The position numbers and the translations under genes were made by a program. A model generated the notes under the pieces. That model was not told the DNA's origin and searched no databases. It was given only the letters and a program-made list of their open reading frames with translations. Below, piece after piece: positions 1 to 15,565 of a DNA stretch of 37,793 bases (within the stretch, counting starts at the first letter, position 1; each line of letters starts with the position of its first letter). Origin of the DNA: Bacteroidales bacterium (GTDB taxonomy: Bacteria; Bacteroidota; Bacteroidia; Bacteroidales; Muribaculaceae); the NCBI GenBank assembly GCA_014800515.1, contig JAAVFY010000026.1, forward strand, positions 5,331 to 43,123. The letters are read 5' to 3'.

Positions 1-1647
1 CAAATAGATTTGGGAAGGTATTCGCTTGATAATGTCGACGACCTGACACTCATCGTTGGCGACAACAACGATATATTCACCTCCGCCCGTGCCTCCGCCT
101 CGGCAGCCACAGTGGTGGTCAACACCGGGTCGGTGCCCGCCACGGCCGATTCGATATGGCACTTTTCCGGACAGTTGCGGGTAGGTTCCTTCGGGCTTGT
201 GAATCCTTATATAAAGGTGGGAAAGGCACTCAACCGGAGATTCTCATTTTCGGCGGTAGGGGAGTATACTTACGGAAAGAACGACTATCCCTATACTCTG
301 CGCAACGGCATTCAGGTCACACGAGAGAAGAGACAGAACAGCCGCATGAGTTCAGGCCACGGAGAACTGAACTTCAGTTGGATGCCTGCATCTTTTAGAA
401 TACTGAACGGAAAGGTGTATTATTACGACAACGACCGTCAGTTACCCGGGCCGGTGGTGCTATATAATCCCACGGCTGATGATACTCTTCATGACAGAAA
501 TTTTTTCGGTCAGCTCACATATACTGACGCATCTGTGGATAAATGGAAATTCCGCGTGACATCGAAGTTCAACTGGGATGCCACTTTCTATCATGAAGTA
601 GACGGCAAATACTCCGCCGGGTTTCAGAATGAGAGCTATATACAGAGGGAGATGTATGTGGCTGGAGCCGCCCTCTTCAATCCGATAAAGAGTCTTTCTG
701 TAAGTTATGCGATTGATTATTTCTACAACAATCTCACGAGCAATGACCCTACGACCGTCGGCCCATCCCGCAATTCGCTGTTGCAGGCACTCTCGGTCAA
801 TTTCAAATGTGAGAGAGTGCAGCTTACGGGAAGGCTGCTCTATTCCATATATCTTAATGACGTTAAGGCCGGGGAGAGCGCGGCCGACCGCAGAAAGATG
901 TCGCCCTCTCTGAGTGTTGCCGTGCAACCCTTCTCGGGACGGCTCTTCTTCCTGAGAGCTTCCTATAAGAATATATTCAGAATGCCGACATTCAATGAGA
1001 GCTACTACTACAGACTCGGAAGCATAGCCCTGAAACCGGAGACCACCGACCAGTGGAACCTCGGCGCGACATGGCAGCGAGGCAAGACCGGACCGCTGAC
1101 GATGCTGGCAGTCACCGGCGACGTATTCTATAACAGGGTGCATGACAAGATTGTAGGCATACCGATGAATATGTTTGTCTGGACAATGATGAATCTTGAG
1201 AAAGTGAGAGCTATAGGAGCTGATCTGACCCTTGATGCCACTTTCAGCCTTGCGCGGCGGCAGACCCTTGTTCTGACCGGTAGTTACAGTTGGCAGAGAG
1301 TGCAGCCACGCACGGCCAAGAGCGATCCGGATTATAACAAGCAGGTGGCATATACACCGGTGCATTCCGGAGCCGCCTCTCTGACATGGCAGAATCCCTG
1401 GGTGGATATAGTGGCGAAACTCACCGGATGTGGCGAACGTTACGGCACAAACTCCAATCTCCCCGTAAGTCGGGTAAAAGGATATGTGGAGACGGGAGTG
1501 TCATTGATGAGAGAACTGACGGTGAGAACCCATAAGGTGAATCTGAGATTAGATGTACTCAATATCTTCGACTGTCAATACGAGATAGTGGCTTCCTATC
1601 CGATGCCCGGAAGATCCTTCAGATTGACAGCCGGATTTTCACTCTGA
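1..1647 (+). CDS. btuB: TonB-dependent outer-membrane receptor, BtuB-type (5' truncated by window edge)
   Basis: Frame is open to base 1; the listed start at 10 is a TTG inside the gene. Beta-barrel-like repeats, 'SYKNIFRMPTFNESYYYRLGSIALKPETTDQWNLG' typical of TonB receptors, C-term 'RSFRLTAGFSL'. Followed by BtuG/BtuF/BtuC/BtuD-like genes. Confidence 0.85.
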   Translation, partial: QIDLGRYSLDNVDDLTLIVGDNNDIFTSARASASAATVVVNTGSVPATADSIWHFSGQLRVGSFGLVNPYIKVGKALNRRFSFSAVGEYTYGKNDYPYTLRNGIQVTREKRQNSRMSSGHGELNFSWMPASFRILNGKVYYYDNDRQLPGPVVLYNPTADDTLHDRNFFGQLTYTDASVDKWKFRVTSKFNWDATFYHEVDGKYSAGFQNESYIQREMYVAGAALFNPIKSLSVSYAIDYFYNNLTSNDPTTVGPSRNSLLQALSVNFKCERVQLTGRLLYSIYLNDVKAGESAADRRKMSPSLSVAVQPFSGRLFFLRASYKNIFRMPTFNESYYYRLGSIALKPETTDQWNLGATWQRGKTGPLTMLAVTGDVFYNRVHDKIVGIPMNMFVWTMMNLEKVRAIGADLTLDATFSLARRQTLVLTGSYSWQRVQPRTAKSDPDYNKQVAYTPVHSGAASLTWQNPWVDIVAKLTGCGERYGTNSNLPVSRVKGYVETGVSLMRELTVRTHKVNLRLDVLNIFDCQYEIVASYPMPGRSFRLTAGFSL

Positions 1648-1700
1648 CAAATAGAGACATGATTTATTCAAGAAATATAAAAAACAGACAAAAAGACAAG

Positions 1701-2825
1701 ATGAAAAAGATTGCTTATCTTCTGTCGGCCATGCTTATGGCCGGATGTATGGCGTCATGCAGTGATGATAACGAGGGTCCGGAAATCACGACAGTAGAGA
1801 CCCTCAGCGGTTTCTACACCATCAATAGCGGCAATATGTCGGGAAAGATTCCCTCCTCCATCACTTCATACGACTATTCCACCTCCACAGCTACTCCCGC
1901 ACTTCAGGATGCTTTCATGAATGCCAACGGTGTGGCTCTCGGCGAGGGAGCGCAACCCGCCATAGTGTATGGTTCCAAGATGTATATCCCGGTGAATAGC
2001 TCCAATCTGATCTGGGTCGTGGATCCCGTCACACTCAAGATCAAGGACTCCATCAAACCAACAGGTGATGCCACAGGCCCGCGTGCGCTTGCAAGTGCCA
2101 ACGGTAAGGTATATGCCTCCATGTTCTCCGGCTATGTATGTCAGATTGACACAGCCACTCTGGAGATAGAGAAAACACTGAAGACAGATCCCAACACCGA
2201 GCAGATGGCTGTGGCCGGCGGCAAACTCTATGTGGCCAATTCCGACGGATACAACTCAAAGAACGGATATGCCGACTGTTCGATATCAATCATTGACCTG
2301 GCTTCCTTCTCGCAGACAAAGATAAAGGACATCTCCAAAGTGATGAATCCTACCGACATCGTGTCCAACGGCACAGATGTATTCGTGATCTGCAAGGGTA
2401 ATTATGCCGATGTGCCCAGTATGGTGAAGAAGATTGTGGGTAGTGACGTTAAGGATGTCGCCCCCGGCAACTATATGGCCATAAACGGCAACAAGCTTTA
2501 TGTCATCAATGCCGTCTACGGCGAACCCCGTGAGAAAATGGGTTTCAATGTTTATGATGTGAATACACTCGAGAAGACCGGCGTGATAGCCAAACAGACG
2601 TCCGGCACCGACTCCTGGGTGGATAGTCCCAGCTGTGTGGCAGCCGACCCCGTGAGTGGCGACATCGTGATTCTGTCATATACGCTCAGCGAGGCCGGCT
2701 ACAGCCAGTATCGCGAACCCTGCTATGCCAACATCTACGATAAGGACGGTAATTTCAAGAACCGTATCGAGTGTGGAGTGGGGGCATTAGGAGTGACATT
2801 CATTCACAAAACCACTGTTAAATGA
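1701..2825 (+). CDS. BtuG-like surface lipoprotein (DUF5074/YncE-like beta-propeller)
   Basis: MKKIAYLLSAMLMAGCMASCSDDNEGPE: signal peptide and lipobox Cys followed by acidic residues (Bacteroidetes surface export-like). Repeated propeller-like blades (IWVVDPVTLKIKDSI, VCQIDTATLEIEKTL, ISIIDLASFSQTKI). Next to btuB and btuFCD. Start chosen at ATG 1701 rather than 1659. Confidence 0.8.
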   Translation: MKKIAYLLSAMLMAGCMASCSDDNEGPEITTVETLSGFYTINSGNMSGKIPSSITSYDYSTSTATPALQDAFMNANGVALGEGAQPAIVYGSKMYIPVNSSNLIWVVDPVTLKIKDSIKPTGDATGPRALASANGKVYASMFSGYVCQIDTATLEIEKTLKTDPNTEQMAVAGGKLYVANSDGYNSKNGYADCSISIIDLASFSQTKIKDISKVMNPTDIVSNGTDVFVICKGNYADVPSMVKKIVGSDVKDVAPGNYMAINGNKLYVINAVYGEPREKMGFNVYDVNTLEKTGVIAKQTSGTDSWVDSPSCVAADPVSGDIVILSYTLSEAGYSQYREPCYANIYDKDGNFKNRIECGVGALGVTFIHKTTVK

Positions 2826-5789: not shown

Positions 5790-5886
5790 GTAGCCGGTCA
5801 AATTAAACGCATAATATGCGAGATATGCGCTGCCTATCTTGACTTTTATCATATCGTTTTCATTTGAACAGCTATTTATAATTGAA

Positions 5887-7377
5887 GTGAAAAGATTGCG
5901 ACCGATAATGTTGGGGGGCACCGGCAGTGATGTCGGTAAGAGTCTGCTCGTGGCCGGGTTATGCCGTATCTTTCTTCAGGACGGATATTCCCCGGCTCCC
6001 TTCAAGGCCCAGAATATGGCTTTGAATTCCTACGTCACACCCGACGGACTCGAAATAGGAAGGGCACAGGCTGTGCAAGCGGCAGCGGCGGGACTGGAAT
6101 GTATGGTGGAGATGAATCCGGTGCTATTGAAGCCGTCGGGACAGAAGAGGGCACAGGTCATAGTCAACGGCCGTCCTGCCGGTGACCGGGAGGCGAGTGA
6201 ATACTTTAATATCCGCAGTCAGCTTCCTCTGAAAGAGACTGCGATAAAAGCCTTCAGGACACTTTCCGCCGGATTTAACCCCATTGTCATGGAAGGCGCT
6301 GGCAGTGTGGCTGAGATTAATCTTCTTGACAGGGACTTTGTGAATATGCCGATGGCCGAAGCCGCCGATGCGGCTGTGATACTTGTCGGTGATATCAACC
6401 GTGGAGGAGTTTTTGCTCAGATATATGGCTCGATAATGCTTCTTCCGGAACACTATCGCAAGAGAATAAAAGGAGTTATCATCAATAAATTCAGAGGGGA
6501 TATTGATTTATTCCGTGAGGGGCGCAGTATGCTTGAGAACCTTTGCGGTGTTCCTGTGCTTGGAGTCGTTCCTTTTTTTCATGACATAGACATAGAGGAG
6601 GAAGATTCTCTGTCGAAGGAGAAATATTCAAGAAGCGCCGTGAAGGGAGAGGTGGTCAATGTAGCCGTGGTGGATGTGCCGCAGATGTCTAATTTCACGG
6701 ATTTCGATTTTCTCTCACGTGACAGCCGGGTTCATCTCTACTTCAGCCATGAACCGGAGGAACTTGAGAAAGCCGACGTGATATTGCTTCCCGGCTCTAA
6801 AAATACAATCTCCGATTTAAGAACGATTTGCGAACGCGGATGCGACAAAGTGATACTTGACGCTCCCGGACGAGGGGTGACTGTGGCCGGGATATGCGGG
6901 GGGTATCAGATGTTGGGTCAAAGTATTTCAGATCCTTACGGAGTGGAGGGGGATATAAGCGAGGTGGAAGGACTCGGGCTGCTCCCGGTCAGAACAACAC
7001 TTAACCGGGATAAGACCCTCACGAGAAGCAGCGTCCGCCTTCCGGGAGAGGATAAGCCGCTTGATGGATACGAGATACATGTAGGAGCCACTGTCCTGGG
7101 CGAGGGATGTTCAAGTATGTTTCTGCGAGAGGATGGAAGTGGTGAGGGTTGCCGGGTTTCTGAAAGGGTGTGGGGTACGTATATGCATGGTATTCTTGAT
7201 AATCCGCGTGTGGTGGATATGCTGTTGCAACCATATCTGGAGGCCCGCTCCCTACCCCTGGAGTGCGATCGCGAGTCACTTTCGCATTACAGAGAAAGAC
7301 AGTACGATATGCTTGCCGATAAGCTGAGAGAGTGTATTGATATGCAATGGCTTTATAAAATCATGAATTATGATTGA
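5887..7377 (+). CDS. cobQ: Cobyric acid synthase (CobQ/CbiP)
   Basis: N-term GTGSDVGKS; GGVFAQIYGS; VILLPGSKNTISDL; GATase motif AGICGGYQMLG; YEIHVG; GTYMHGILDN. GTG at 5887 (VKRLRPIMLGGTGSDVGKS) preferred to TTG 5839. Confidence 0.92.
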   Translation: MKRLRPIMLGGTGSDVGKSLLVAGLCRIFLQDGYSPAPFKAQNMALNSYVTPDGLEIGRAQAVQAAAAGLECMVEMNPVLLKPSGQKRAQVIVNGRPAGDREASEYFNIRSQLPLKETAIKAFRTLSAGFNPIVMEGAGSVAEINLLDRDFVNMPMAEAADAAVILVGDINRGGVFAQIYGSIMLLPEHYRKRIKGVIINKFRGDIDLFREGRSMLENLCGVPVLGVVPFFHDIDIEEEDSLSKEKYSRSAVKGEVVNVAVVDVPQMSNFTDFDFLSRDSRVHLYFSHEPEELEKADVILLPGSKNTISDLRTICERGCDKVILDAPGRGVTVAGICGGYQMLGQSISDPYGVEGDISEVEGLGLLPVRTTLNRDKTLTRSSVRLPGEDKPLDGYEIHVGATVLGEGCSSMFLREDGSGEGCRVSERVWGTYMHGILDNPRVVDMLLQPYLEARSLPLECDRESLSHYRERQYDMLADKLRECIDMQWLYKIMNYD

Positions 7378-8383
7378 GGGACACGGCGATGACCTGTACC
7401 GCTACAAAGGAAAAGTGGCGCATAATTTCAGCACTAATATCATATCCGACAGAAATCATGACGGCCTGCTGTATGAGTTGAGACGCGAATTGCCATGTAT
7501 CGGGAGCTATCCCGAACCGTGGCCCCTCTCGCTCGAGAACAAACTTGGCGGTATCTTGGGCTGCTCGCGCGAGAATATAGTCGTGACGAGCGGTGCCACT
7601 GATGCCGTTTACCGTATAGCCCTCATTCATCATGGGGGACGGTCGGCGGTGTGCCGTCCGACATTCAGAGAATATCAGGATGCCTGCGCGCTTCATGATC
7701 ACTCGGTCTCATTTTTCGACGCCATTGAAGGAGTCCCGGAAGAGTCCGATCTCGTATGGCTCTGCAATCCCAATAATCCTACCGGGAAGACGTGGGATAA
7801 ACGGGAATTGCTCTGCCTGGCAGAGAGAATGCCCTCGGCATGGATAGTCGTGGACCAGGCATATTCCGATTATTCGGTTGTCCCCGTATTGACAGTGGAA
7901 GAGGCGTTGAGTCATCGGAATATTATTTTGCTGAGCTCTTTGACGAAGAGGTATTCGGTGCCCGGTCTGAGAGTGGGATATCTCACAGCCTCCGAAGAAA
8001 TATGCGAGGCGATACGTTCCCACGGGTTGCCGTGGGCGGTGAGTTCGCCGGCCATATCCGGAGCTTCCTATCTGCTTGATCATTCCGGGGACTATCCGAT
8101 AAGAAAGGAATGGCTTCACGCGGAGATTATGCGTATTGCGGAAGGATTTAGGGAGATGGGGATAAGCACGTCAGAGACCGATTGCAATTTCATCTTATGC
8201 CGGTTGCCCGAAGGGCGTAAGGCCTCGGATCTTAAGGAATATCTTGTGGCGGAGAAGAATATCCTGATTCGGGATGCCTCCAATTTCGAGGGGCTGGGCA
8301 GCGGCTATTTTCGTGTGGCGGCGCAGGATGAAGCTGCCAATGACTTACTTCTAAAAGGAATAAGGGAATGGATACTTGGATGA
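7370..8383 (+). CDS. cobD: L-threonine-O-3-phosphate decarboxylase-like, PLP aminotransferase fold (CobD)
   Basis: GHGDDLYRYKGKVAHNFSTNI; CNPNNPTGKTW; SSLTKRYSVPGLRVGYL (PLP Lys motif). Located between cobQ and cbiB, overlapping cobQ by 8 nt. Confidence 0.85.
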   Translation: MIEGHGDDLYRYKGKVAHNFSTNIISDRNHDGLLYELRRELPCIGSYPEPWPLSLENKLGGILGCSRENIVVTSGATDAVYRIALIHHGGRSAVCRPTFREYQDACALHDHSVSFFDAIEGVPEESDLVWLCNPNNPTGKTWDKRELLCLAERMPSAWIVVDQAYSDYSVVPVLTVEEALSHRNIILLSSLTKRYSVPGLRVGYLTASEEICEAIRSHGLPWAVSSPAISGASYLLDHSGDYPIRKEWLHAEIMRIAEGFREMGISTSETDCNFILCRLPEGRKASDLKEYLVAEKNILIRDASNFEGLGSGYFRVAAQDEAANDLLLKGIREWILG

Positions 8384-9333
8384 ATATTCTATGGGGCGGA
8401 TGGCTATATTCGGTAGTACCCCTGATTGGAGGCTGGGTGCTCGACCGGATTTTTGCAGATCCCGCATGGTTGCCACATCCCGTGGTGGGATTCGGAAAGA
8501 TTATTTCATCCCTTGAGCATAAGCTGAACAGGGGTAATCACCGGATGTTTAAGGGCGAAATCACGTCATGCGGACTGATTCTGACGGTCTTTATACTGAC
8601 CTGGGGAGTGATGTATTTTGTAAGTCCGAAGCCTGTGGTCCGTATATGTCTGGGAACAATCGGGGTGTTTTATTGTCTTGCGGGCACGACTCTTGTCCGC
8701 GAGGTGAGAGGTGTGTTTAAGGCGTGTGACGAAAGTCTTGAGGCCGGGCGGCGGCAGGTAGGACGAATTGTAGGCCGCGACACCGGCGAGTTGACAATGA
8801 ATGAAGTCCGGACAGCGGCGCTCGAGACATTGGCCGAGAATCTTAGTGACGGCGTCGTGGCTCCGCTGTTTTGGTATATGGTGGCCGGCCTGCCCGGCAT
8901 GATGGCCTATAAGATGATAAATACGCTTGACTCAATGATCGGCTATCGCAACGAACGCTATCGGGAGTTCGGGTGTGTGGCCGCGCGGATAGACGATGCC
9001 GCCAATTTTATTCCGGCGCGCCTGACGGCGGCTCTTATGATATTATTGTCAGGCAAGTGGTCTTTAGGCAGCTTCGTCAGACGTTATGGCCGTTGCCATG
9101 CCAGTCCGAATTCCGGCTATCCGGAAGCGGCCTTGGCCGGGATTCTCGACTGTCGCTTCGGAGGTACGCACGATTATTTCGGACAAGCAGTTGTCAAGCC
9201 TTATATAGGGAGCAACCTCCGGGAAATAGATGCTTCGGATTTGATGCCTTCCGTGATTATCTGTGTATGCGTCGAGATATGGGCGGTTGTCCTGACTGCT
9301 GTTGTCTCGGTTATGACGGGTAGTTTATTCTGA
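8368..9333 (+). CDS. cbiB: Adenosylcobinamide-phosphate synthase (CbiB/CobD)
   Basis: LDRIFADPAWLPHPVVGFGKII; ETLAENLSDGVVAPLFWYMVAGLPGMMAYKMINTLDSMIGY; PNSGYPEAALAG. Confidence 0.92.
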   Translation: MDTWMNILWGGWLYSVVPLIGGWVLDRIFADPAWLPHPVVGFGKIISSLEHKLNRGNHRMFKGEITSCGLILTVFILTWGVMYFVSPKPVVRICLGTIGVFYCLAGTTLVREVRGVFKACDESLEAGRRQVGRIVGRDTGELTMNEVRTAALETLAENLSDGVVAPLFWYMVAGLPGMMAYKMINTLDSMIGYRNERYREFGCVAARIDDAANFIPARLTAALMILLSGKWSLGSFVRRYGRCHASPNSGYPEAALAGILDCRFGGTHDYFGQAVVKPYIGSNLREIDASDLMPSVIICVCVEIWAVVLTAVVSVMTGSLF

Positions 9334-9859
9334 TGATATCACCGTATGGGGGAAGACTGTCGAAGAGGTGATCGAGTGCTATTCTCTCTACGAGCAATAA
9401 AGCGCAAAGAATGACACCTCCATGAGTGAAGAGGAGTATATTTTCTTTTCCTTCGGAGGCGCAACGGTTGAGAAAAGCTTTGACCCTCTCATATTGATCA
9501 GCCATTGATTCGCCTCCTCCCGCCGGGAAAGAAAACCAGTCGTCAAACCATAACTGTAACTCCGGATCTGATATTTCCTCAAACCGCTGCATTTCCCACC
9601 GGCCGAAATTCAGTTCCTTAAGAGAGTCCTCGATTTCCGCCTGAGGATAACCACACCACTTTGCAAGACGTCTGCACCGGGAGAGTGGACTGGTGTAGAC
9701 CGCGTCGAAAGATTCGTCGGAGAATGGGGATGATTCCAATCGTTGAGCCACAGTGCGGGCCTCCTCTTCAAAGGTGTCGTTGAGCGGCACGTCCGTGTGT
9801 CCGTAGCATGTGCCGGGAGCGACGTTGACAGATGTGTGTCGAATGAGAGTAACTTTCAT
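9311..9859 (-). CDS. cobC: Histidine phosphatase, alpha-ribazole phosphatase-like (CobC)
   Basis: MKVTLIRHTSV (RHT motif), VYTSPLSRCRRLA, ELNFGRWE, FTHGGV; followed by cobS. Confidence 0.8.
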   Translation of the reverse strand: MKVTLIRHTSVNVAPGTCYGHTDVPLNDTFEEEARTVAQRLESSPFSDESFDAVYTSPLSRCRRLAKWCGYPQAEIEDSLKELNFGRWEMQRFEEISDPELQLWFDDWFSFPAGGGESMADQYERVKAFLNRCASEGKENILLFTHGGVILCALLLVERIALDHLFDSLPPYGDIIRINYPS

Positions 9860-10637: not shown

Positions 10638-11672
10638 TCAGAAATATTTTATTACGCCGACGGATGCGAAATCGTCCATCTCATTGATCATTCTGACGGC
10701 AGAATCAATGATAGGATAAGCGCAGACCGCTCCGGAACCCTCTCCAAGACGCAGCCCGAGGTGGAGAATAGGATCGGCATCCAAGGCTTCAAGCATCTTT
10801 TTATGCCCGGATTCATCTCCCTGATGACCGAATATGGTGTATTCCAGAACTTCAGGATATAGCTTCGAGGCTGCCAATATGCAGGAAGTCATGATGAAGC
10901 CGTCGACAATAATCACCATGCCGAGTTCAGCCGCTTTGAGCATGCCTCCCACAGCCATTACCATCTCATAACCGCCAAACCAGGACATTATATCCTCCGG
11001 AGAACCGTCACCCGCGTAATTGGCGGCTGCTCGGGTCAGGACGTCAAGCTTATGACGTATGCCCGGAGAGTCAAGGCCGGCACCGGCTCCAACGCAGTCG
11101 GCAAGAGGAATGCCGGTGAAGAAGTGCATCCACATTGATGAAGAGGACGTGTTGCCGCTTCCCATCTCGCCGAAGCTTACCACATTACATCCGGTTGCCG
11201 CCACATCTTCCACTATTCCGGCACCACGTTCTATGGCCAGATGGAATTCGTCACGGGTCATTGCCGGTTCGTGGAGGAAATTACGGGTGGATTTTCTGAT
11301 TTTGCGGTCAATGATGCCTTTTCCCTCCGGAATATCATAATCTACACCCGCATCCACCAGTGTCAGCCGGAATCCGTGCTGATTACAGAGAAAATTGATG
11401 CCGGCTCCTCCATGTGAAAAGTGGGCCAGCTGCTGCCATGTCACATCTTTAGGCGACACACTCACGCCCTCTTCAATGATGCCGTGGTCGGCGGCGAATA
11501 GAATATTATGTGGATTGGAGAGTCTCGGAGTCAGGGTCTGTTGGATAAGGCCTATGCGGCGTGCAAGGGTCTCAAGCTTTCCTAAAGAGCCCTTCGGTTT
11601 GGTGAGAAAGTCGATTTTCTCCGTAAGAAGAGGTTCAATCTCGCGAGAGGGAGTAGTGATATTGAAGTTCAT
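10638..11672 (-). CDS. cobT: Nicotinate-nucleotide--dimethylbenzimidazole phosphoribosyltransferase
   Basis: [73 protein letters not shown]. Confidence 0.93.
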
Positions 11673-11722: not shown

Positions 11723-12244
11723 TTATTTGAGTTTCATGGGGATACCGGCTACAGTGAGGTAAACTTCATCAGCCCGGGCTGCGATATATTGGTTAAACCA
11801 ACCCTGGAGATCTGTAAAGGCCCTTTGCATGGCATTGGGAGCTATTCCGCCTGAGCCTATTTCATTACTGACTAAGATATAGACGCCCGGCCGGGAGACT
11901 AAAGTGTCGAAATAAAATTTAAGCTTTTCGAGAGCAGCTCTTGTATCCTCCTGAAGATGAAAGAACATATTCGTGGCCCACATGGTGACGCAATCAAGAA
12001 GAACCGTGCGGCCGGTGAGATTCAGACTATCCGGACGGAGAGTCTCCTCGAACGTGGTCCATTGCGGACCGCGTCTCCGGCGATGCAGACGCACCCTCTC
12101 TTCAAATTCATTATCGCGCACTTGAGCTGTGGCGATATACACCGGACTGTCAGAATATTCGAGAGCCAGTCGTTCGGACAAGGTACTCTTTCCGGAACGT
12201 TGACCTCCGGTGATAAGTATCACTTTGGACTTAGACTTTTCCAT
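11723..12244 (-). CDS. cobU: Adenosylcobinamide kinase/guanylyltransferase
   Basis: [64 protein letters not shown]. Confidence 0.93.
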
Positions 12245-13211
12245 ACAATCGATATAGAGGATTCAAGTTGCGTATTGTTCCCTTTGAGGCTTCCTTTTCG
12301 GAATAAGCTGTCACGTTGTCGGGCGACAGGCAAGGGTCATAGATAATGACCGGTACCGGAGAGTCATTGTGTTTCCCCGTTTCCCATAAAGCACGATGAT
12401 CCGGAAGCAGAGCTATTGCAGTAGGCTCTACATAATCCTTTGCAAACTCCAAGATGGGATGCACTACGTGCCGGTCGATTTTTTCGATAGCATCCTTTTT
12501 TAGGTTGAAGTCGCGTAAGTGAGAGGCTGTGTCGCACGCTTCAATGTGGAGGATAACAATATCGTATTTTTTGAGAGCTTCGATGGCGGCACTTGATTTT
12601 TCGGAATAGTCGGTGTCGAGGTTTCCGGTGGCGTGCGGTGGAGAGATGAATCTCATGCCTGCGAGCTTCGCGATACCCTTAAGTAGCGGCACGGCTCCGA
12701 TAATCACTCCTTCCCTGCGACATCCATCCGTAGGCATGGGCGGAAATTCCGACAGGGAGTGTGGACACGAGTGACTCCAGAAGCGTGTATTATGCTCCTC
12801 ACCGACCGGTATGTCGCATCCCGCCCCGATCACTATGCCGGCGTGAGAAGAGACAGGATGAAAGCGGAGCTCAGGATAGAGAGCTGTGAGTGATGAAATA
12901 GATTCTTCTTCCGGCAGTTGGTTATAGCGTGCCACGGTGTCATGTTCCGACACGTATATATCCGAGCCCACTGCTTCAAGAAATCCACGTCCTCCGGGTA
13001 TTTCCGATGATGGGTAACCGAGAATTGACAGTATACCGACTTCACTCCCGGCATAGAATCCGTCGGGAATGGTGTTGACAAGTCCGCAACGGGAGATAGC
13101 GGCGAGACGATCCATAGCCGGGGTGCAGGCGGCCTCGAGAGGAGTGAGCCCACCGGCAGATTCAGACGGTTCGTCAGCCATTCCGTCGCATATTATCACG
13201 CAGCATTTCAT
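12231..13211 (-). CDS. ApgM-type (archaeal-type 2,3-BPG-independent phosphoglycerate mutase/alkaline phosphatase superfamily) protein
   Basis: MKCCVIICDGMADEPSESAGGLTPLEAA; AGSEVGILSILGYP; HIEACDTASHLRDFNLKKDAIEKID; LLPDHRALWETGKHNDSPVPVII. Start moved to ATG at 13211; the longer ORF (to 13544) overlaps the upstream gene. About 326 aa. Confidence 0.8.
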   Translation of the reverse strand: MKCCVIICDGMADEPSESAGGLTPLEAACTPAMDRLAAISRCGLVNTIPDGFYAGSEVGILSILGYPSSEIPGGRGFLEAVGSDIYVSEHDTVARYNQLPEEESISSLTALYPELRFHPVSSHAGIVIGAGCDIPVGEEHNTRFWSHSCPHSLSEFPPMPTDGCRREGVIIGAVPLLKGIAKLAGMRFISPPHATGNLDTDYSEKSSAAIEALKKYDIVILHIEACDTASHLRDFNLKKDAIEKIDRHVVHPILEFAKDYVEPTAIALLPDHRALWETGKHNDSPVPVIIYDPCLSPDNVTAYSEKEASKGTIRNLNPLYRLYGKV

Positions 13212-13218
13212 ATTTGCC

Positions 13219-14337
13219 TTAATCATTAATAGGAGTCGGGAGATATATTTCAGCCAATTGAGAGGAGAATCGTTGCCAGTCAAGAGAACGCGCGAAAGAT
13301 TTATGCGCTTCACGGCCCATCCGGAGTCGGAGTTGAGGATCTGAAGTGAGGCGAATGAGAGCGTCAGCAATACTTGTGGTGTCTCCCGGCAGGACAATGA
13401 AAGCCTCACGTCCGTCGGTAAGATATTCCTGCTGAGCTCCCCGTGCCGTGCATATCTGAGGACGTCCGGCGGCCATATACTCTGTGTTCGAGAGACCGAA
13501 CGGTTCTTCATTGACCGTGGGCAGCACACCGATATGCACCTCATTTATAAGAGAAATTGAGTTTATAGGATGCTTTCGCCAATCGATCATCTCCATCACA
13601 TTTCTTGCCTGAGCCCGGCGACGCAGAGAGTCTACATAATCCGGATCGCCGTTGCCGGCTATGCGGAGCCGGAGGCGCAGCGGTTTCAGTCGAGGCAGTG
13701 CGTCAATAAGATATTCAAGTCCTTTGCCCGGAGCAATCGTGCCATGGTACATGGCAATGACGGGCCCTTTTTCCGGGGGAGGAACCGGGCCGGAAAAATC
13801 GGGGAGATACAGAGAATTGTGGAGAATATGGATACGATCGGGGGGGATGGGCGACAAGCCTTCGGACCATGTGGAAAGGAATCGTGAGGCCACTGTCTGC
13901 GACACGAATATAATTGCATCCAGGTTTCGGAAGATACGCCGAGAGAGACGGTTGTCACGACCTTTACGGATGGAATGAACCGTAAGGATAATCCTCACAT
14001 CCTTGCGTTTCGCTATTTTGCGGGCGAGCAAAGCCATAAAGGCATCCCGAATATGATGCACATGAACCACACCACGCGACTGCGGCATGAGACGCATCAT
14101 TCGGGAGAGGCTCAATGCCGAGGGAATATCAAAAGCACCTCCGAGCGGAGCATGACGCAGGCGTATCCTGTAGTCGCGGAACACGGAGTCCACCGCTTTT
14201 GCATCACGAGTGAAAGCCGTCACTTTCCAGCCGGAGACTGAGAAATGACGGCTTATATCAAGTGCATATCGTTCCGGGCCTCCGAAACGTATGGAACTGA
14301 CCACTTGTATCAATTCATTCCTTGATGACATGGCCAC
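13219..14337 (-). CDS. GT4-family glycosyltransferase
   Basis: RFGGPERYALDISRHFSVSGWKVTAFT; YHGTIAPGKGLEYLIDALPRL; EEPFGLSNTEYMAAGRPQI (GT4 EPFG...EAMA-like motif). Confidence 0.85.
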   Translation of the reverse strand: MAMSSRNELIQVVSSIRFGGPERYALDISRHFSVSGWKVTAFTRDAKAVDSVFRDYRIRLRHAPLGGAFDIPSALSLSRMMRLMPQSRGVVHVHHIRDAFMALLARKIAKRKDVRIILTVHSIRKGRDNRLSRRIFRNLDAIIFVSQTVASRFLSTWSEGLSPIPPDRIHILHNSLYLPDFSGPVPPPEKGPVIAMYHGTIAPGKGLEYLIDALPRLKPLRLRLRIAGNGDPDYVDSLRRRAQARNVMEMIDWRKHPINSISLINEVHIGVLPTVNEEPFGLSNTEYMAAGRPQICTARGAQQEYLTDGREAFIVLPGDTTSIADALIRLTSDPQLRLRMGREAHKSFARSLDWQRFSSQLAEIYLPTPIND

Positions 14338-14350
14338 GTTCTGAGTGAAG

Positions 14351-15454
14351 TCAGTTGGCTGCGGTGAGCATTACGCTTATATCTACGGAGGGGAGATTAA
14401 GGAAAGAGCCGATGAGTTTGTCGACGAGACGGCCTTCGTAGGTGACGATGCCGGCTTGCACACCCGGAGTGGAGGCGAGCATACCATCGAAACCATTTTT
14501 AATAATCATCTCATCGAAGAAGTTGACAAGCACATTGCTCAGCGACATGGCGACAGTGCGTGGCACTGACATGGAGGGATGGGACTCCTCAAAGTCAAGC
14601 AGATAAACCGATTCCTTCATTGCCACTGAAAGCTTCTTGGGGAATTCGAAAGCGCGGGTGGTGGTGCCGATGAAGATGACATCCGCAGTCTTCACTTTGT
14701 TGAAGAGTACTCTCGGATGAATGGCGATAGTGTTGAGCATATCGCCGCAGCACTGTTTTGCCATCTGAAGGGCGGATATGTCATTATTCATCAAGGTCAC
14801 GTATGCACCGGATGCAATGGCGGCTTTGCAAGCTGCATATACATCGTTGCCATCACCTATCACAAGCACCTCGCAAGGATTGAGTCCGGCCACACTGCCG
14901 AGCAAGACGCCCTTGCCTCCTCCGAGGAAGGAGAGATGATCCTGAGCGTACATCACGGCCGCCCGTCCGTTGATTTCGTCAATAATATTGGCAAAGACAG
15001 GCTCATCGTTGAAGCTATACATATTGTCAAGACAACCAGCTGTGATTCCTCTTTCAAGGAGAGCTGCGATATGCGACATCTCAAACAGACAGTTGTCCAT
15101 CATTGTAAGAAGCACGGATCCGGGACGCATCTCCATGATTTCCTCCGATTTCGGGGGGAGGTAGGATAACACAATGTCGCATTTCAGAGCCTCGCGGCGA
15201 GTCACAATCTCCACACCGAACTCCGCATACTGCTCGTCGGAGAAGGAAATGTCGACAGCGGCGCCGCTTTCCATACGGATATGTATTCCTGAGGCTGTCA
15301 GCAGTCCGCACGCTTCCGGAGTCAGAAGGAAGCGAGTCTCATCGTTATCGGGGTTATTGCCCAGCAAGCCGATATTTAATTCTCCACCAATTTCTTCGAG
15401 TATTACTTGCTCCGTCTCAGTTTGGAGATCTATATGTCTATTGTCTTCTGCCAT
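14351..15454 (-). CDS. Alanine dehydrogenase/PNT-fold protein, catalytic motifs apparently degenerate
   Basis: TRFLLTPEACGLLTASGIHIRMESGAAVDISFSDEQYAEFG resembles the AlaDH/PNT N-domain; GGGKGVLLGSVAGLNPCEVLVIGDGNDVYAACKAAIASGAYVTLMNND resembles the NAD domain; PGVQAGIVTYEGRLV. Start MAEDNRHID at 15454, not 15565. Confidence 0.7.
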   Translation of the reverse strand: MAEDNRHIDLQTETEQVILEEIGGELNIGLLGNNPDNDETRFLLTPEACGLLTASGIHIRMESGAAVDISFSDEQYAEFGVEIVTRREALKCDIVLSYLPPKSEEIMEMRPGSVLLTMMDNCLFEMSHIAALLERGITAGCLDNMYSFNDEPVFANIIDEINGRAAVMYAQDHLSFLGGGKGVLLGSVAGLNPCEVLVIGDGNDVYAACKAAIASGAYVTLMNNDISALQMAKQCCGDMLNTIAIHPRVLFNKVKTADVIFIGTTTRAFEFPKKLSVAMKESVYLLDFEESHPSMSVPRTVAMSLSNVLVNFFDEMIIKNGFDGMLASTPGVQAGIVTYEGRLVDKLIGSFLNLPSVDISVMLTAAN

Positions 15455-15534
15455 AATTGTTTGATTTATGTCCTGCCGGCCTCCGGGAGAGTGCCATAAG
15501 GTGGTTTCGATATGTCGACGGAATGTCTCACCGA

Positions 15535-15565
15535 CAAAATTAGTAAAATTTTCGTGAGTTGACAA
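15535..15565 (-). promoter_or_regulatory. Bacteroidetes-type promoter for the AlaDH-like/GT/cob transcription direction
   Basis: On - strand TTG (15565-15563), 20-nt spacer, TAATTTTG (15542-15535), about 80 nt upstream of ATG 15454. Confidence 0.65.

What the first reader, a model, noticed from the sequence alone, without database searches (positions are those of the whole stretch)
12231..13211. ApgM-family protein within the cob cluster: candidate for a missing phosphate-transfer step
Metal-ligand-like motifs are kept (DGMAD; AGSEVGILSILGY; HIEACDTASHLRDF; LLPDHR...HNDSPVP), but the protein is short (about 326 aa) and overlaps cobU by 14 nt. The cluster has a CobD-type threonine-phosphate decarboxylase but no PduX/BluE-type threonine kinase in the window, while a CobC-like phosphatase is already present. 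Some ApgM relatives have been proposed as homoserine kinase analogues. Hypothesis: this paralog supplies L-threonine-3-phosphate (or an aminopropanol phosphate), or is an alternative alpha-ribazole phosphatase.
Basis: partly seen in the sequence, partly recalled or inferred. Interest (0 to 1): 0.65.

Follow-up and report, generated by a model that had tools for sequence, protein, structure and literature searches.

The report
Short phosphotransferase-like protein in B12 clusters
A shortened relative of phosphoglycerate mutase sits in the vitamin B12 gene cluster of this gut bacterium and its relatives, where no known enzyme makes threonine phosphate, so it is a good and testable candidate for that missing step.

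Summary
In detail: an intact 326-aa ApgM-like gene (12231-13211, minus) overlaps cobU by 14 nt and keeps all alkaline-phosphatase-superfamily metal ligands. It is short because its central substrate domain is reduced. It is not a one-off. Orthologues (type II, 43-53% identity, six genomes, one a cultured Muribaculaceae isolate) all lie in ApgM-cobU pairs. A second short lineage (type I, seven genomes) lies directly after btuD and/or before cobIJ or cobQ. In the genus sample all nine genomes with a short ApgM have a cob cluster and none has thrC. All 13 genomes with the full-length homoserine-kinase-like ApgM (ThrB2) carry it beside thrC. In a 198-genome family sample all ten short or divergent ApgMs are in CbiB+ genomes (p about 2e-9). 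No PduX/ThrB-type GHMP kinase was recognised in those genomes, while CobC and the other nucleotide-loop steps are present. Best reading: it supplies L-threonine-O-3-phosphate to CobD. A role in cobamide assembly is well supported; the exact reaction and phosphate donor are inferred. Main counter-evidence: 11 of 31 CbiB+ genomes have neither ApgM nor a recognised GHMP threonine kinase. The phosphatase, homoserine-kinase and phosphoglycerate-mutase readings are weaker.

The parts
12231..13211 (-). short ApgM-like protein (type II), 326 aa; candidate threonine-phosphate-forming enzyme
12768..12941 (-). codons 91-148: reduced central (cap) domain, about 60-70 aa instead of about 130 in full-length ApgM/ThrB2
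   Evidence: alignment, residue table, AlphaFold2 model
13185..13187 (-). Asp9, metal ligand
   Evidence: invariant in types I, II, III, ThrB2 and outgroup rows
13044..13046 (-). Ser56, nucleophile position (Thr in 6 of 7 type I proteins)
12519..12533 (-). Asp227 and His231, metal ligands (DTASH)
12540..12542 (-). Glu224, where archaeal ApgM rows have Lys
12396..12401 (-). Asp271-His272, metal ligands
12369..12371 (-). His281, metal ligand
11723..12244 (-). cobU, overlaps the ApgM gene by 14 nt
   Evidence: NF004469, 154 bits, just under its 161 cut-off
10638..11672 (-). cobT
   Evidence: TIGR03160 398 bits
9856..10605 (-). cobS
   Evidence: NF001277 172 bits; TIGR00317 109 bits
9311..9859 (-). 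cobC, alpha-ribazole phosphatase
   Evidence: TIGR03162 182.6 bits, above cut-off
8368..9333 (+). cbiB
   Evidence: TIGR00380 207.6 bits, above cut-off
7370..8383 (+). cobD-type threonine-phosphate decarboxylase, 337 aa, no fused kinase domain
   Evidence: TIGR01140 235 bits (cut-off 290.6), best family
5839..7377 (+). cobQ
   Evidence: NF001989 602 bits
2822..5789 (+). btuF-btuC-btuD type corrinoid ABC transporter genes
   Evidence: PF01497, PF01032, PF00005; homologues lie beside cob genes in relatives

Best explanation
The gene encodes a shortened ApgM-fold phosphotransferase dedicated to cobamide nucleotide-loop assembly. It most likely phosphorylates L-threonine on its side-chain oxygen through the conserved Ser56 nucleophile and the two-metal centre, from a donor not yet known, giving L-threonine-O-3-phosphate, which CobD decarboxylates to (R)-1-aminopropan-2-ol phosphate for CbiB. 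It works in genomes that lack threonine biosynthesis and hence the related homoserine-kinase-like ThrB2; where ThrB2 is present, ThrB2 may do the same job as a side activity. Shown: gene, fold, metal ligands, conserved cob linkage, co-occurrence, no GHMP threonine kinase recognised, presence of all other steps. Inferred: substrate, direction and donor.
For: Linkage: all six type II genomes have ApgM next to cobU and all seven type I genomes have it next to btu or cob genes. Co-occurrence: genus sample of 61, short ApgM in 9 genomes, all cob+ (p about 1e-6), none with thrC; 13/13 thrC genomes have ThrB2 adjacent. Within 17 cob+ genomes short ApgM and thrC exclude each other (p 0.002). Family sample of 198: 31 CbiB+; 10/10 short or divergent ApgMs in CbiB+ genomes (p 2e-9; 7/7 without the three thrA-linked ones, p 1e-6) and none together with ThrB2 (p 0.014). 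Natural comparison: G352 has btuD-ApgM-cobIJ, while thrC+ G392, with closely similar cluster proteins, runs btuD straight into cobIJ. Elimination: no PduX/ThrB-like GHMP recognised in CbiB+ genomes or in the short-ApgM genomes inspected; CobC, CobS, CobT, CobU, CobQ, CobD, CbiB present. Chemistry: metal ligands kept; a family relative, PhpG, is named as transferring from a CMP-bound donor (family name).
Against: No activity shown for this protein, and none found published for ThrB2: BT2402 is needed for growth without threonine but did not rescue an E. coli thrB mutant (PMC7311316). Eleven of 31 CbiB+ genomes have neither ApgM nor a recognised GHMP threonine kinase, so Thr-P can come from elsewhere. 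Type II lost central-domain residues that type I keeps, so the two may not share a substrate. No ATP-binding motif was identified. BluE and non-GHMP kinases were not searched; the own genome is only 80.7% complete. The p-values ignore shared ancestry.
Confidence: 0.48

Rival explanations
1. It is another phosphate-handling enzyme of cobamide assembly: a second alpha-ribazole-5'-phosphate or adenosylcobalamin-5'-phosphate phosphatase, serving the same dephosphorylation as CobC.
For: Alkaline-phosphatase-superfamily active site complete; central substrate domain reduced, as might fit a hydrolase; type II sits with cobU-cobT-cobS-cobC, which handle these substrates.
Against: A CobC is in the window above its cut-off and in every cluster long enough to show it, so the step is already filled. 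Does not explain the exclusion with ThrB2/thrC.
Confidence: 0.14
2. It phosphorylates free (R)-1-amino-2-propanol, or handles a lower-ligand or other cobamide intermediate, rather than threonine.
For: Same linkage and co-occurrence evidence; the acceptor-binding part of type II differs from ThrB2.
Against: CobD was found in nearly every cluster with a short ApgM, so Thr-P rather than free aminopropanol is the expected precursor.
Confidence: 0.18
3. It is the organism's homoserine kinase analogue (ThrB2), relocated to the cob cluster by chance.
For: Type II is 43-45% identical to thr-linked ThrB2, about as close as to its own distant orthologues; ThrB2 proteins share its Glu224.
Against: No thrC in the assembly nor in any of the nine short-ApgM genus genomes, while all 13 ThrB2 genomes have thrC beside it; far below the TIGR02535 cut-off; central domain lost.
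Confidence: 0.06
4. It is a phosphatase of a damaged or toxic intermediate (metabolite repair) that merely travels with cob genes.
For: The fold is shared with phosphatases and it is absent from 21 of 31 CbiB+ genomes in short form, so it is not essential everywhere.
Against: Two separate linkages (types I and II) and exclusion with ThrB2 point to a specific pathway role.
Confidence: 0.1
5. It is an ordinary phosphoglycerate mutase.
For: Family name; AlphaFold2 model closest to archaeal ApgM 2zkt and 3kd8.
Against: A separate PF01676 protein of 529 aa, GpmI-like, is in the genome; the Lys kept in all outgroup rows and in solved ApgM structures is Glu in all short forms; most of the substrate domain is missing.
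Confidence: 0.03

Closest known systems
ThrB2 / TIGR02535 'proposed homoserine kinase' (BT2402 type)
   Same: Same fold, same metal ligands, same Glu in HIEA, 43-45% identity over aligned parts; clade neighbour in the tree.
   Different: ThrB2 is 400-417 aa with a full central domain and lies with thrA/thrC; the cob form is 325-334 aa, lies with cobU and occurs in genomes without thrC.
Archaeal cofactor-independent phosphoglycerate mutase ApgM (TIGR00306; 2zkt, 3kd8)
   Same: Overall fold (TM-score about 0.67-0.79) and catalytic metal set.
   Different: Central domain reduced; Lys to Glu change; score under the curated cut-off.
PduX L-threonine kinase (Salmonella)
   Same: Proposed to make the same product, L-threonine-O-3-phosphate.
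   Different: PduX is a GHMP kinase (own knowledge); unrelated fold.
BluE L-threonine kinase (Rhodobacterales)
   Same: Another non-orthologous answer to the same missing step (PMC6249242, PMC8123684).
   Different: No sequence relation known to me; not tested here.
CobC alpha-ribazole phosphatase
   Same: Same pathway, phosphate chemistry, same operon.
   Different: Histidine phosphatase fold; already present at 9311-9859.

Membership tests
ApgM / TIGR00306 | score above the curated cut-off (320 bits) | tested here: not met
   272.5 bits
ApgM / TIGR00306 | alkaline-phosphatase-superfamily metal ligands and nucleophile | tested here: met
   D9, S56, D227, H231, D271, H272, H281 conserved
ApgM / TIGR00306 | complete central substrate domain (PF10143) | tested here: not met
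   62 of 170 positions matched; reduced in model and alignment
Phosphoglycerate mutase (archaeal ApgM) | Lys before the metal-ligand Asp, kept in archaeal rows and solved structures | tested here: not met
   Glu224 here
ThrB2 / TIGR02535 | score above 446.3 bits | tested here: not met
   232.9 bits
ThrB2 / TIGR02535 | linkage to thrA/thrC and a thrC in the genome | tested here: not met
   no thrC in the assembly, 80.7% complete; none in nine short-ApgM genus genomes
L-threonine kinase (function, EC 2.7.1.177) | forms L-threonine-O-3-phosphate | not testable with these tools
   needs an enzyme assay; context and elimination only
PduX | GHMP kinase domain PF00288 | tested here: not met
   P0001 matches only PF01676 and PF10143
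BluE | sequence similarity to BluE | not tested
   no BluE sequence was at hand
CobC alpha-ribazole phosphatase | histidine phosphatase fold, TIGR03162 | tested here: not met
   no match; the cluster has a separate CobC

The most novel reading that the evidence does not exclude
Muribaculaceae use a further, non-orthologous kind of threonine kinase for B12, built on the alkaline-phosphatase/phosphoglycerate-mutase fold, recruited once or twice from homoserine-kinase-like ApgM, and in threonine-prototrophic relatives the homoserine kinase analogue itself does both jobs.
Probability: 0.35. Interest if true: 0.75.

Novelty: new variant of a known kind. Interest (0 to 1): 0.57.

Why it matters
[quoted passage not shown] A cob-linked gene family with a clear on/off pattern, including a cultured mouse-gut isolate, makes the gap directly testable. 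It also bears on whether ApgM-type proteins such as BT2402 are amino-acid kinases at all.

Tried and rejected
The first tree with single P0001 placed it on a very long branch; adding five orthologues fixed this. L064 in G321 looked like a very short family member but is a broken copy with an internal deletion. G394's extra GHMP gene looked by eye like a heptose kinase rather than PduX. A cobalamin riboswitch in front of the ApgM operons was sought and not found at Rfam gathering scores; the one hit (L174) is upstream of the opposite-strand operon. A linkage of ThrB2 to CbiB as such was tested and not found (p 1.0). I+II+III as one clade is neither shown nor rejected (AU 0.37). The paper on BluE (PMC6195846) is not held. 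Literature searches found no report of cob-linked ApgM, but the library is partial.

Full report
The object. Orthologues of 325-334 aa start at the same Met, so the longer 437-aa frame is an upstream extension into the neighbouring gene. It overlaps cobU by 14 nt and begins 7 nt after a glycosyltransferase gene. Family searches place it in the ApgM branch of the alkaline phosphatase superfamily but under the curated NCBIfam cut-offs: TIGR00306 272.5 of 320, TIGR02535 232.9 of 446.3.

What is missing and what is kept. The protein matches the two ends of ApgM models and lacks most of the middle: PF10143 is matched over 62 of 170 positions. In alignment the metal ligands and nucleophile (D9, S56, D227, H231, D271, H272, H281; assigned from what is known of the family) are kept in all relatives, except that type I mostly has Thr for Ser56, while the Lys of the archaeal rows is Glu224 here and in all Bacteroidales forms (solved 2zkt and 3kd8 also have Lys). 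AlphaFold2 gives a confident model (pLDDT 86.7, pTM 0.88) with a small residual cap; the closest solved folds are archaeal ApgM 2zkt and 3kd8.

Not a one-off. Two short lineages exist. Type II (this protein): the window genome, G394=L207, G366=L208, G391=L209, L210, which is the cultured Muribaculaceae bacterium Isolate-036 (apparently the same contig as in G429), and L211. All six have ApgM directly beside cobU. Type I (345-357 aa): G321, G352, G373, G383, G389, G242, G432, directly after btuD and/or before cobIJ or cobQ. Each type is one clade with full support; type I is sister to an unlinked type III found in two CbiB+ genomes; whether I, II and III share one origin is open.

Co-occurrence. 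In 61 genomes of the genus, short ApgM occurs in nine, all with a cob cluster (eight with CobD in the assembly, the ninth with its cluster cut by contig ends), none with thrC; 13 genomes have the 400-aa ThrB2 and all 13 have thrC next to it. Fisher p is about 1e-6 for short ApgM against cob clusters, and 0.002 for exclusion with thrC inside cob+ genomes. In 198 family genomes, 31 have CbiB; all ten short or divergent ApgMs are among them (p 2e-9), three of these being thrA-linked, and without those it is seven of seven (p 1e-6). No genome has both a short form and ThrB2 (p 0.014). These p-values ignore shared ancestry. A telling pair: G352 has btuD-ApgM-cobIJ, while G392, with closely similar cluster proteins but with thrC and ThrB2, has btuD overlapping cobIJ with no ApgM.

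Elimination. The pathway from cobyric acid needs CbiB, CobD, a threonine kinase, CobU, CobT, CobS and a phosphatase. All but the kinase are in the window. The assembly's only GHMP kinase found is IspE-like, and the CbiB+ relatives show GalK-, IspE- and fucokinase-sized GHMP hits and a few of other length, none recognised as PduX or ThrB; most of these were judged by length only. CobD is 337 aa, with no fused kinase.

Mechanism. The best reading is transfer of phosphate to the threonine hydroxyl by the Ser56/two-metal site. Donor unknown. The parallel case BT2402 is needed for threonine synthesis but failed to replace E. coli ThrB (PMC7311316), so the donor may not be ATP. The pattern of one ApgM form per genome suggests that ThrB2 may act on threonine too; this is inference.

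Against. Eleven of 31 CbiB+ genomes have no ApgM of either kind and no recognised threonine kinase. So an unknown source of threonine phosphate exists in some relatives, and absence of PduX alone cannot prove the role of this gene. BluE and non-GHMP kinases were not searched. The own genome is 80.7% complete.

Verdict. Involvement in cobamide assembly is well supported (about 0.85, my estimate). Threonine phosphate formation is the leading specific role (0.48). The finding is a new short, cob-linked subfamily of a known protein family with a direct bench test in a cultured strain.

Noticed in passing
L064:8932-9522 (G321): A second btu-cob cluster in the same genome carries a broken type I ApgM with an internal deletion of well over 100 aa, while the copy in L063 is intact.
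   Followed up: partly
L275 (G402) and L069 (G299): Type III short ApgM beside dnaQ/dnaN-like genes, not cob-linked, yet only in genomes with a cob cluster.
   Followed up: partly
L067 (G250), L283 (G338), L280 (G403): Divergent 360-369 aa ApgM directly beside thrA, a shortened homoserine-kinase candidate.
   Followed up: no
L262-L272: Eleven CbiB+ genomes, six of one genus, with cobD-cbiB (mostly with cobQ) but no ApgM and no recognised PduX-like kinase: an unexplained threonine phosphate source.
   Followed up: partly
window 10-2825: TonB-dependent receptor and DUF5074 protein next to btuFCD, kept beside cob genes in several relatives; probable corrinoid uptake.
   Followed up: no
L174:19455-19648: Cobalamin riboswitch in front of a PepSY-like gene and the cobU-cobT-cobS-cobC operon.
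   Followed up: no
window 13219-15565: Glycosyltransferase and alanine-dehydrogenase-like genes directly upstream of ApgM on the same strand; not seen beside ApgM in the relatives examined.
   Followed up: no
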